Source of the DNA: Liolophura sinensis
Taxonomy: Eukaryota; Mollusca; Polyplacophora; Chitonida; Chitonidae
Assembly: GCF_032854445.1 (NCBI RefSeq)
Contig: NC_088296.1
Coordinates: 15,301,485-15,365,484 of the forward strand
DNA: 64,000 nt
Reading direction: 5' to 3'
Position numbers and translations under genes: made by a program. Numbering within the stretch: the first letter of the stretch is position 1; each line of letters opens with the position of its first letter. A model generated the notes under the pieces. It saw only the letters and a list, made by a program, of their open reading frames with translations. It was not told the DNA's origin and made no database searches. Shown here piece by piece: positions 10,564 to 25,463 of the stretch.

Positions 10564-10717
10564 CTACATGTGAGTCGTTTTGGCTTGCTGACATCCAGCC
10601 GCAGGGCGCCAACTGTCACTTACGGTGGGTGGAGATTTGACTGTTATTATTTCACTAGAGGTTGCAACTCTTGGAGAGACAGGTATGCTGCTGGGATTGT
10701 TGTTTGCATACTTTTTG
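10564..10717 (-). CDS. Gene 2 last exon: cytoplasmic tail
   Basis: The minus-strand acceptor is TTACCTTCCAG, ending at 10718. One base completes a Ser codon after the membrane exon, then KKYANNN and a Ser/Thr/Pro-rich stretch follow to a TAG at 10566-10564. An in-frame ACC|GTAAGT inside the exon (donor near 10624) could be used as an alternative donor, which would drop the last 19 residues. Confidence 0.65.
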
Positions 10718-13700
10718 CTGGAAGGTAATACAAGATATTTTTTTATTATACTGAACTTGCTTTCTATTTGATTGATTTTGATTGGTGTTTTACGCCGTAC
10801 CCAAGAATATTTCACTTATACGACGGTGGCCAGCATTATGGTGGGTGGAAAACTTGCTTTCTAACATTTGTTTTCGCCTGCAACACACATGTGATTCGAT
10901 ATGAGACGGAATAATATTTATTTATTTATTTATTTATTTATTTATTTGATTGGTGTTTTACGCCGTACTCAAGAATGTTTCACTTATACAACGGCGGCCA
11001 GTATTATGGTGGGAGGAAAGCGGGCACATCCCGGGGGAAACCCGCGACCATCCGCAGGTTGCTGGCAGACCTTCCCCACGTACGGCCGGAGAGGAAGCCA
11101 GCACGAGCTGGACTTGAACTCACAGCGACCACATTGGTGAGAGACTCCTGGGCAATTACGCTGCGTTAGCGTGCTAACCAACTGAGCCACGGAGGCCCCA
11201 CACGGAATAATAATCCTTCATGCACGTCTTCTATGGAGAAAAACAAAACACATCACAGTGTGACTGATAAGCTTCTTAAATTTACCAGTATCACGATTCG
11301 AACAAGCCGGTTCATTGGTAAAATGTTTCAGACAATGTATGGGAAAGACAAAGCCAGACAAATTCTGGAAGTGTCCAAAAGTTACATAATGATTGCGCGA
11401 CGCTTAAAAATTACTGAATGTAGGCGATTTAGTGACTATTTTATGAATTATATGTAACTAAAGTAATAAACTTACCTACGAAAACAGCAGCAGACTCCAA
11501 CGACTACCAGGCAAAAACCACCACCACCGCCTAATACATATCCAGTGTTGAAATAGGTTGTCTCTAGTGACGAAAAATAGATATATATGGGTTGCTGCGT
11601 CAGAGAAGAAGCTAGTATCATGGAACACCAATTCAGTTAGTTAGTTGCCATGAATACTCATGATCTTTCCTTTACATATTGATCCTTTGCTCTCACTGCA
11701 TGTATGGTAAGCCTTGGTGAAGTGGTCGAAGGCGCTCATAATTGTCGTTTACACATTCTGATGTTCGATAAAGGTTACTGGCTTTCCACTAATATGTTTA
11801 AACATGTAAATTACGTTACATGTAGTGAATACCAACAGTAGCCTAACTTGTAAACTGTCAGTGGTTTATCCCAGGAGACCCTGTTTCTTCGCTTTTTCCA
11901 ACAGCAACACACACGTATAAGAGTTCCTGAGTATGGCGATATTTATTTATTATTTATTTATTTGATTGGTGTTGTATTTATTTATTTATTTATTTATTTG
12001 ATTAGTGTTTTACGCCGTACTCAAGAATATTTCACTTATACGACGGCGGCCAGCATTATGGTGGGAGGAAACTGGTATTGAGGAAATCCACGACCATGCG
12101 TAGGTTTCTGTCAGACCTTCCCACGTACGGCCGAAGAGGAAGCCAGCATGAGCTGGACTTGAACTCACAGCGGCCGCATTGATGAGAGGCTCTTTGGCCA
12201 TTACGCTGCGTTAGGGCACTAACCAACTGAGCACGGAGACCCTGAGCATGGCGATAAAAAGCAATCAAACAATCATCAATAAATAAACAATGTACAAAAT
12301 TGAAAACTTTGCTTAAAGTTAAATTTGGATGTGCATCGGTGTGAAGAAAGCCGACACCTACGAATGCCATTTTAAGCTGCAACACAATGAAGAGCGCCGT
12401 CGAGCGCTCGTCGACTTCGGTTTAAACGCATATTAACATTTATGTACCAAAGTAGCAGTCAATTTCGAGGTAGAAACGTATACAACAACGCTTCAGGAAG
12501 TTACTGTCAACACAAATTAAAGCTCAGCATAAAGAATTGTTTAACACAAGGTAATGATAAAGGTAAAATACTATTCTGGCTGTATTAGTAACAATAACGT
12601 TCTAGATAACAAATATGTGTCACGTTACAAGAATGTGACAATAAGGTTACAAGAGTGCAGTAGGTCACAAGGAAGTACTAGGTCAAAATATTGTATTATG
12701 TCACAAAAGCGTATTGGGCACGTGTACATGTAGCAAAAATGTATTAGGTCATAATGATGTATTTGATTACAAGAATGTAGGACACAAGAATGTATTGGGT
12801 AGCAAATTGTACTATGCAACAAGAAATGCTGGGAGCCTCGGTGAAAATAAGAACTGCGCAACTCAAAGTACATACAGGTAAGGGAGGCTAACCCAAGAAC
12901 TTACTTTCACAATGCTTTTTATCCGCTGTTAGTGTCCATCCCGATTCGCATGTTCTTTCTGAAAATCAGGAGACACAAAAAGTACGTACATATATATATA
13001 TATATATATATATATATATATATATATATATATATATATATATATATATAATTTTACATTTAAAGTAGTCTGTAAATGTATTAATCAGGAAATGAAATAT
13101 GAAAATCAGGAGACACAAAAAGTATATATATATATATATATATATATATATATATATATATATATATATATATATATATATATATATATATATATATATA
13201 TATAGCAAGTTGTAACTTCCTCGCTCGTCGTTCAGCATGAAGGGCATAGTGCAACGAAAATGTCTTCTGCGGGCAGCTTACTACCGTTCAGTAAGCCGTC
13301 TTAGTGAAGAAGCTCTGGATAAAAGAGCGGTGTAAATCCGCCCTGCAACAAGGAAGCACATTACATACATTCTAAGGATTCCTTCATCGTCATATAACTA
13401 AAAATTGTTAAGTACGACGTTAAACCCCAAACACTCACTCACTCACTTTTCAAGAGACAAACGTTAATCATCATTTTCAAGCCCTCCACTAGTAACACCA
13501 TCTGAAAACATTTTTTGCATCGTTTCTATCTTCCTTGATAAGAATAAAATTCATTTACATATTTTAATTCTGATGTGGGCTCCTTGGGCCACATCGGGCG
13601 TCTATGACATATTCTTTGTAAATTTCCCGTTGACAATGTACTTGTGAATTGTTGTTTGTGTTATGTGCTGTCATCTAGATGAATCAAGAGCCATTCTGTG

Positions 13701-16700
13701 AATAAGAAAGTGGTTTGTTCAGTTATTTGATTGTAGTTTAACGTTATACTCAAGAAATTTACACATGTATGATAGGGGCGGAGAATGGGTGGAGAAAGCA
13801 AGCGTGACAAAATTTCACACTTGTGACTGATGAGGGACAAGAACACAAATGGCCAAACGAGAGAATTTAATTTTGTTCAAGAAAAGTGAAAAAAAAAAAC
13901 ACATGACATAAACAGAATCACAGTCTGATGATTCTAAACACGGGTTTCCATTGTGTGTCTCCTGATAGTCTTCACATTTTTGCCAGCGTGGGACAATGGT
14001 AAAGGATCCTCTCACTAATGCCGTCGCCGTGAGTTCAAGTCGAGCTCATGCTGGCTTACTCTCCGGTCGTGGGTGGGAAGGTCTTGCAGCAACCTGCGGA
14101 TGGTTGTGCGTTTCCCTCGGGCTATTCCCGGTTGCCTCCCACGATAATGCTGACAACCGTTGAAATCCTTCTCCCTTCTCAAATCACGGTTAACGAATTT
14201 GTTCCTACATTATTTTGAAACTTTTTTGTGTATATACATGTATATAAAGTTGGGCTAAAACCAGATACACCTTTCACAAACCCTACGTAAGGTTACGTGC
14301 ACTTAACATTCATGGCGACCAGTACTGTGGGTATTACGCCGCCTAGGTAATTACGTGAAGGTAGCGCTACGTGACCTTTGTGAAATAGACTTTTGGGCGG
14401 GAGGGGGGGCTGTTTCTCAAAGGGGTCGAAACGTTACGCGGGCCTAATCAGAATGACGTCGCATACTGAGGGCATACATCGCCTTGGTATTGGCGACTTG
14501 GGTAACGTTACAAACAATTTTCTCCAATCGTACGTGGTCCCCGTATTTACAAGTGAAATGTTCTTGAGTATGGCGTAAAACAGAAATCAATTTATTTATT
14601 TATTTATTTATTTATTTATTTATTTATTTATTTATTTATTTATTTATTTATTTATTTATTTATTTATTTATTTATTTATTTATTTATTTATTTATTTATT
14701 TATTTATTTATCTATCTATTTATTTATTTCATTTGTAGATCATATTTTAACCATTAACCCCACCGATTTTCACACTCTATAATTTCTTCAACACCTTATG
14801 GCTAGTTCCCCTTAGATTTTAGAATGTCTGGAGGTTAAACTGGTCCTGGTTCGCCTGTGCAACCGCCCACAGTGTCTCAAAAGAGGAATACATTCACAAG
14901 TTTATATATCAAGAGACAAAGCCTGTTCACAGCATTTTTGTATCAAATTAAAGACGTTCACTTTTAACAAGAATAATTATCAAAAGATAGAGGTAAGAAC
15001 CTTTACGGAACACTCCCCGGGCGGTAAAACACAAACCTGTATTCTTTGGAACATCCTCTGTAATTCATAGAATAAAAGATACATTGTTTGATGATTGGTT
15101 CCACATGATTGGTGTTCCACATGATTGGTGTTTTACATGATTGGTGTTTTGCATGATTGGTGTTTACGTTATTTTAGTGTTCAACATCTATTATAGGTTC
15201 TGGGGGCTTTGCTTAAGTACACTGTTAACAGAAAAAGGGACGAAGTCATAGGGTCTGTTTTCACCCTGATGTTTAAGGTATGGACATGACCAACCCTACA
15301 GATTAGGGCCAAACAACATACCCTACGATATAAGGTCAAGCGACTCCAAAAATTGGTGTCAAATTCTGAGCCTAAAATGTAGGATCGATGAACTCCACAA
15401 ATCAGGGTGATATTTCTGACACTAAAATGTAGGATCGATGAACTCCACAAATCAGGGTGATATTTCTGACACTAAAATGTAGGATCGATGAACTCCACAA
15501 ATCAGGGTGATATTTCTGACACTAAAATGTAGGATCCAGCGACTAACTCAACAAACAGAGTCGCCTGATCCACTAATCCAGGGCAGGGACATCCACCACC
15601 CCTCTCTCTGGGAGGAAACGGGGCCAAGTCCGGGGGAAACCCCCGACCATAAATGCATAAGGTTAGAACAATGCTTCAGGTCACAGCAATGTGTGGGGTG
15701 GATGTAGAGTGAATGTATTAAATGACAAGAATATATCATGTCACACGAATGTGTAAAATTACAAGAATGCATTAGGTCACAAGAATATATTAGGTCAGAA
15801 GAAAGCATAAGGTCACAAGGAAGTATTATGCCACAAAAATGCATTTGGTCTAGAGCATGTATTAGGTCGCAAAAGGTTATCGCGTACATGTGCAAAACTG
15901 TATTAGGTCTCAATGATGTATAAGGTCACACGCATGGACTTGGATACAAAAGTCTATTAGGTCACCATAGTGTGCATGGGGACAAAAAAGTGCTATGTAA
16001 CAAGAGAGCCTGAGACCTTCGAAAGATCAGCTCAGCTATAAGCCTATGATTGTAAGGGGAGACTACCCAAACACTTACTTTCACAATGTTTTTCATCCGC
16101 TGTTAGTGTCCATCCCGGAGAGCATATTTTTTCTGAAAATCAAATATATAAATTAAAAAAAAATACATTTGAATTAGTCAATAGACATTATATATTTGGA
16201 AATGCATTAATTTGATGATATTTTTTGTTGTTGTTGTTGTTTTTTTTTCTTGTTCTTTTTTTTTTTTTTTGCTTTTTTGTCTTCAAGGAGAGACAAATGT
16301 TAGTCACCGTTTTCAAGCGCTCTTATAGTGACAGCAACTGAAAAATTCACGCACCTTTTGTATTTTTCTCGGCAAGAATGAAATTCTATTAGTTACACGG
16401 GAACTCAGTGACAGGATACTCAAATATGAGGATTTACTGACATAATGTATTTGCGCATCATGTAACGGATGTATTCTGCAAAAAACACGTCGATTCGGTG
16501 CAGAAGGCCACAGGCCCCCATTAATTTTCCATAAGCGAGAATGTTAACTTTTCGCGCTGTAGCTCAGCCCCAAACATCCCGTGGCCAATAAGCTTTGGTG
16601 CACACCTGCCCCAGTCTGTGAGAAAGAAGCCATAAAAATCTTGACATAGGTTGACCGTCAAAATCTGGACCTTTCTATATCGGCAGCTGGGAGGGGTGTC

Positions 16701-25274: not shown

Positions 25275-25455
25275 GATTCTGTTCCAGTTTATTCAAGAAA
25301 GCGGAGATACAATGTAGATGTTACTCGACGGGCTCGGATAAAACGCAAATAACTTCGTGCTGCTGGCAAACTGTTACAGAGGCAAAATTCACTGTGTACC
25401 TGAGCAGCGATGCATGGCATTGCTTTGTAAGAACTTAGAGCTTCGTTAGTGGGAG

Positions 25456-25463
25456 TATTTATA
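25456..25463 (-). promoter_or_regulatory. TATA box of gene 2
   Basis: The minus strand reads GGCTATAAATACTCCC. It lies about 180 bp before the ATG, which allows a start site near 25430 and a 5' leader of about 155 nt. Confidence 0.6.

What the first reader, a model, noticed from the sequence alone, without database searches (positions are those of the whole stretch)
10564..25463. Compact membrane-protein gene built from three tiny two-cysteine exons
Six minus-strand exons fit together in phase from a TATA box to a stop: signal peptide, three modules of 18-20 residues on 54-60-nt phase 1-1 exons, membrane helix and tail (160 residues). Each module has only two cysteines (C-x2-G-[YW]-T-x(6-8)-C-E), like the last EGF loop alone. 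A receptor-like protein made of single EGF hairpins is unusual. The exon joins are seen in the sequence; the protein-level reading is inference.
Basis: partly seen in the sequence, partly recalled or inferred. Interest (0 to 1): 0.75.

Follow-up and report, generated by a model that had tools for sequence, protein, structure and literature searches.

The report
Chiton membrane protein of disulfide hairpins
A chiton genome carries what looks like a small gene for a membrane protein whose outside part is three short two-cysteine loops, each on its own tiny exon and each resembling only the last loop of a normal EGF domain; the gene model holds up in the DNA, but expression and function are untested.

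Summary
Six minus-strand exons join in phase into 160 residues: signal-like leader, three two-cysteine modules on 60-, 54- and 54-nt phase 1-1 exons, a hydrophobic segment and a tail. Separate scans return the same parts: the only signal-like first exon in about 28 kb, three of four strict phase 1-1 candidates, the better of two helix exons in 144 kb. No intron exon with an EGF cysteine pattern was seen. The protein matches Pfam cEGF, a last-loop profile (35 bits, cut-off 26.6); 0 of 10 cysteine-fixed shuffles do. Exons 3 and 4 lie in a duplication that includes intron DNA. The assembly matches that of the chiton Liolophura sinensis. No paralogue was found in it; 91 of 91 listed cEGF places elsewhere hold five or more cysteines. 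Weak points: no transcript, no second species, no fold, dN/dS near 1 between exons 3 and 4. Most likely a real type I membrane protein with an outside stack of stand-alone EGF-type hairpins; its binding role is inferred.

The parts
25456..25463 (-). TATA box TATAAATA, about 190 bases upstream of the start codon
   Evidence: also read
25202..25274 (-). exon 1: ATG with A at -3 and G at +4, signal-peptide-like [24 protein letters not shown], ends in phase 1
   Evidence: the only candidate first exon with a hydrophobic core and phase 1 donor in 17230-45000 minus
17167..17226 (-). exon 2: module 1, [20 protein letters not shown], 60 nt, phase 1-1
16079..16132 (-). exon 3: module 2, [18 protein letters not shown], 54 nt, phase 1-1
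12905..12958 (-). exon 4: module 3, [18 protein letters not shown], 54 nt, phase 1-1
11476..11563 (-). exon 5: hydrophobic segment [20 protein letters not shown] with a CCC cluster at its inner end, phase 1-2
   Evidence: Kyte-Doolittle 2.2 over 19 residues; higher-scoring of 2 candidate helix exons in 144 kb, both strands
10564..10717 (-). exon 6: tail of about 50 residues and TAG stop
   Evidence: no donor above the threshold of 3 inside it
15807..16142 (-). duplicated unit copy A (exon 3 and the start of intron 3); further colinear blocks at 16851-16953 and 16289-16386 in intron 2
12641..12968 (-). duplicated unit copy B (exon 4 and the start of intron 4); further colinear blocks at 13614-13716 and 13453-13552 in intron 3

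Best explanation
A real, spliced chiton gene encodes a small type I membrane protein. After signal cleavage the outside part is about 60 residues: three tandem two-cysteine hairpins, each like disulfide c (C5-C6) of a C1r-type EGF domain standing alone, each on its own phase 1-1 exon, so that modules can be added, lost or skipped without breaking frame. Exons 3 and 4 arose by duplication of a stretch of exon plus intron. One helix anchors the protein; a cysteine cluster at its inner end (possible palmitoylation, recalled) leads to a short tail. Most likely the hairpin stack is a short disulfide-braced stalk that binds a partner at the cell surface, as EGF-type stalks do. Shown from sequence: exon anatomy, phase, duplication, cEGF match, no paralogue found in the searches of this genome. 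Inferred: expression, disulfide pairing within modules, surface location, binding.
For: In-phase six-exon model. Separate scans for signal exon, cysteine exons and helix exon return these parts. cEGF 35 bits against a cut-off of 26.6 for the whole protein, three stretches; modules alone 19.8, 17.9 and 19.1 bits; 0 of 10 cysteine-fixed shuffles of the three-module part match cEGF at E up to 1. A weak second match, FXa_inhibition (9.5 bits, cut-off 33.4), also falls on the last loop of that profile. The two cysteines of each module are 12 apart; the loop is 8 in JAG1 EGF2, called hEGF-like there (passages of PMC2725086), and that cEGF loops are longer is recalled. Duplication of exon 3/4 with intron DNA; exon more alike than the aligned intron after it, 46 of 54 against 184 of 254 bases, one-sided p = 0.033. 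Precedent that an exon starting with the last EGF loop is a structural unit: JAG1 exon 6 (passages).
Against: No transcript, no orthologue from another species, no structure. dN 0.17 and dS 0.15 between exons 3 and 4: over 18 codons no sign of purifying selection on the whole module, though the core [11 protein letters not shown] is unchanged. Each module alone is below the Pfam cut-off. JAG1 exon 6 carries the loop together with a whole EGF, not alone. A leader ORF of about 43 codons precedes the start (read). The genome searches that found no paralogue also did not return the ordinary EGF exons, so distant relatives could be missed.
Confidence: 0.62

Rival explanations
1. The six outside cysteines form one compact six-cysteine domain with disulfides between modules, a non-standard EGF-like or other fold, rather than three separate hairpins.
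For: Exactly six cysteines in the outside part, the number of one EGF domain; the third module sits where C5-C6 would.
Against: Spacing is strictly periodic, x12-x4-x12-x4-x12, as for repeated units; the C4-x-C5 of EGF is not met (x4); no six-cysteine EGF model reached its cut-off; modules 2 and 3 arose by duplication.
Confidence: 0.15
2. A relic or unexpressed gene: exons copied out of an EGF gene and left, with an open frame that survives by youth or chance.
For: dN/dS about 1 between exons 3 and 4; no paralogue found; introns with transposon-like and simple repeats.
Against: All six exons open and in phase, good donors and acceptors, start context and TATA; exon more alike than its intron between the copies.
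Confidence: 0.13
3. The model is part of a longer protein: unseen exons add cysteines and complete EGF domains, or a longer tail.
For: Intron 1 is 8 kb; exon 6 contains a GTAAGT that could act as a donor (read), and downstream exons would be hard to see.
Against: Of the candidates with four or more cysteines at loose thresholds, one span in intron 1 and six spans in introns 2-5 other than exon 5 variants, none shows an EGF pattern by eye and all have weak donors (0.1-0.8); the GTAAGT in exon 6 follows CC and does not reach the donor threshold of 3.
Confidence: 0.08
4. Chance assembly of open frames.
For: Exons 2-4 are very short.
Against: One motif exon in 100 simulations against 3 observed; cEGF match with shuffle control; exons 3 and 4 are copies.
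Confidence: 0.02

Closest known systems
cEGF, Pfam PF12662 (complement Clr-like EGF-like, 24-position profile)
   Same: All three modules match profile positions 5 or 6 to 20; 12 residues between the two cysteines.
   Different: The first four cysteines of the EGF domain are absent; in 91 of 91 listed cEGF places elsewhere in this genome at least five cysteines lie together.
JAG1 exon 6 unit (Notch ligand Jagged-1)
   Same: An exon whose product begins with the last disulfide loop of an EGF, shown by NMR to be a structural unit (passages of PMC2725086).
   Different: There the loop packs on a complete EGF2 of the same exon and has the short 8-residue form as read for EGF2; here the loop stands alone and is repeated.
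Calcium-binding-type EGF exons of the same genome
   Same: Phase 1-1 exon modules.
   Different: Many of those exons are predicted at 123-132 nt with six cysteines (some longer, one with two EGFs); these are 54-60 nt with two cysteines and lack the acidic start of calcium-binding EGF (motif recalled).

Membership tests
EGF-like domain | six cysteines with C4-x-C5 (pattern recalled) | tested here: not met
   two cysteines per module; x4 between neighbouring pairs
cEGF (PF12662) | profile score over Pfam's gathering score | tested here: met
   whole protein 35 bits, cut-off 26.6, summed over three stretches; single modules 17.9-19.8, below it
cEGF (PF12662) | long loop between the last two cysteines (recalled) | tested here: met
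   12 residues in all three modules
calcium-binding EGF | acidic calcium-binding start before C1 (recalled) | tested here: not met
   modules begin NQTSLC, KKIC, KRTC; no calcium-binding EGF model among the five Pfam matches
type I single-pass membrane protein | signal peptide and one helix | tested here: inconclusive
   hydropathy only: 2.13 over 11 residues and 2.2 over 19; no dedicated predictor at hand
EGF-type hairpin | disulfide within each module | not testable with these tools
C-type lectin N-terminal hairpin (C-x2-G-W, recalled) | a lectin-domain match | tested here: not met
   no lectin family among the five Pfam matches at E up to 10

The most novel reading that the evidence does not exclude
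The last EGF loop has become a free-standing protein module: a symmetrical 54-60-nt exon that is duplicated and stacked on its own, giving a membrane protein made of single disulfide hairpins with no EGF core, perhaps a chiton- or mollusc-restricted invention.
Probability: 0.45. Interest if true: 0.55.

Novelty: new variant of a known kind. Interest (0 to 1): 0.42.

Why it matters
If true it shows that a fragment smaller than the usual EGF domain can be the unit of exon duplication and perhaps of folding, which bears on whether exon borders or domain borders mark the true folding unit, the point raised by the JAG1 exon 6 work. The assembly paper reports tissue RNA-seq for this chiton, so the gene model can be tested directly.

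Tried and rejected
Extra EGF exons in the introns: weak candidates only, none with an EGF pattern by eye. Place at C8:45293521 (E 6.2): low-complexity repeat, not a relative. Two weak places on C1 and C7 (E 0.158 and 2.53, two stops each): not exons of this kind; the C7 one is a tandem repeat. Solved structures: 0 matches with the whole protein at E up to 10; the module profile gave 3 chance-level matches. NCBIfam: one match far below its cut-off. Other Pfam matches of the whole protein, CPL1-like, DUF4215, TMEM51 and FXa_inhibition, and PCSK9_C3 for module 3, are below their cut-offs. Two of the ten shuffles had weak matches to other families, one of them EGF_Pikachurin at 10 bits. The bacterial promoter scan of 25300-25700 found nothing and does not suit this genome. 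One search read minus-strand loci in the wrong orientation; repeated (stopped by a file error after L001). One locus, L004, holds N. The cEGF control lists the 91 places that pass E 0.001 among 150 scored of 1254 candidates; the window's own modules are not in it, so it cannot exclude other weak hairpin-only exons. Literature: nine searches. Seven aimed at this kind of module or at chiton membrane proteins and one at Liolophura listed nothing on a protein made of single EGF hairpins, judged from titles and starts of abstracts; one search showed 10 of 16 papers and one search showed 10 of 23. The ninth sought the genome paper and showed 10 of 1,113. This covers open-licence papers only. The published gene set of the genome was not seen, so the gene may be annotated there.

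Full report
What is there. All acceptors end in AG and all five donors read GTAAGT or GTGAGT. The start codon has A at -3 and G at +4, and TATAAATA begins at 25463. The frame reads: signal-like leader; [56 protein letters not shown]; a short linker; a hydrophobic segment with a CCC cluster; a tail of about 50 residues. An N-glycosylation motif (NQT, rule recalled) lies at the first exon join.

Is it more than chance. I scanned with simple hand-set splice matrices. With strict thresholds 4 phase 1-1 candidate exons exist in 10000-25800 minus, and the 3 with two or more cysteines are the modules. Loose thresholds list 9 spans with two or more cysteines, the other 6 without the module pattern. 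In the whole window at loose thresholds the motif appears in 3 of 19 minus-strand spans, the modules, and in 3 of 31 plus-strand spans, which are variants of one six-cysteine exon at 640-771. In 100 first-order simulations of the 15.8 kb the module-type exon appeared once. A scan for first exons with a hydrophobic core and a phase 1 donor over about 28 kb returned one candidate, exon 1. A scan for phase 1 helix exons in 144 kb, both strands, returned two, with exon 5 the higher. The parts were thus found separately and fit together in phase.

What the modules are. Pfam gives cEGF for the whole protein at 35 bits, over the cut-off of 26.6, with three stretches. Alone, the modules score 19.8, 17.9 and 19.1, under the cut-off. 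Ten shuffles of the three-module part that keep the cysteines in place give no cEGF match in 10 of 10; two of them had weak matches to other families, one an EGF family at 10 bits. The two cysteines of each module are 12 residues apart and neighbouring modules are joined by 4. The matched part of the profile is the last loop of a C1r-type EGF (recalled); the first four cysteines are missing. In the JAG1 paper (passages, PMC2725086) loop length is one of the features that separate hEGF from cEGF, and an exon that begins with the last loop of one EGF is shown to be a structural unit, though together with a whole second EGF.

How it arose. Exons 3 and 4 lie in a duplication that includes intron DNA, in three colinear blocks of 69, 75 and 80 percent identity. 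Exon 2 is a more distant relative of exon 3 (75 percent over 52 bases). Exons 3 and 4 differ at 8 of 54 bases, the aligned intron after them at 70 of 254, one-sided p = 0.033. Against this, dN is 0.17 and dS 0.15: five of the six changed codons change the residue, so there is no sign of purifying selection on the whole module, while the core [11 protein letters not shown] and both cysteines stay. The test is weak at 18 codons.

Where it comes from. The assembly has 632 contigs with C1 of 96,433,062 bases, C9 of 37,343,639 and C4 of 25,057,479. The Liolophura genome paper gives 632 scaffolds, longest 96,433,062, N50 37,343,639 and a scaffold of 25,057,479 (passages, PMC11068029); the total differs slightly (609,464,459 held; 609,495,693 printed). 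A correction names the species Liolophura sinensis (whole text, PMC12441733).

Relatives. The 160-residue protein gives 7 matches at E up to 10: its own six exons and one low-complexity place. The three-module part gives 5: its own three exons and two weak places with stops that are not relatives. Exon 3 DNA finds itself and exon 4 only. These searches did not return the ordinary EGF exons, so they reach close relatives only. Of the 91 cEGF places that pass E 0.001 (150 scored of 1254 candidates), 91 of 91 have at least five cysteines in the match plus the 36 residues before it, 90 of 91 at least six. In the eight loci where I looked at exon borders many EGF exons are predicted at 123-132 nt, some longer and one with two EGFs. 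The list does not hold the window's own modules, so other weak hairpin-only exons may exist. No eukaryotic collection of other species was at hand.

How it most likely works. A type I membrane protein with a short, disulfide-braced outside part that binds a partner at the surface; modules can be varied by duplication or by skipping since all three are phase 1-1. Anatomy is shown; expression, pairing, location and binding are inferred. The rivals are one six-cysteine domain, an unexpressed relic, and a longer protein with unseen exons; none is excluded.

Verdict. A new variant of the EGF kind if expressed. Interest moderate, since transcript and orthologue evidence are lacking.

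Noticed in passing
window 640-771 + and 748-870 bases left of the window (+): Two phase 1-1 exons with six cysteines each on the opposite strand; the first is weakly EB-like (14.5 bits, cut-off 24.3), the second has no Pfam match: perhaps a neighbouring extracellular-protein gene.
   Followed up: partly
window 3986-4999 +: Open 337-residue Tc1/mariner-type transposase frame (DDE_3 and HTH_Tnp_Tc3_2 over their cut-offs).
   Followed up: partly
window 21904-23053 +: Frames that read like pieces of a non-LTR retrotransposon reverse transcriptase inside intron 1 (my reading; the one piece scanned, 22294-22758, had no Pfam match at E 0.1).
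   Followed up: no
window 33522-33917, 40490-40876, 41947-42285 +: Three frames sharing a similar stretch (LNECEEK...), the first two nearly alike, the third more diverged; no Pfam match at E 0.1 for the one scanned.
   Followed up: no
window 17423-17513 and 14173-14264 -: A stretch of about 90 bases shared (84 percent) by intron 1 and the intron before exon 4; a dispersed repeat or an older layer of the duplication.
   Followed up: no
window 25275-25440 -: A leader ORF of about 43 codons ends just before the start codon (read).
   Followed up: no
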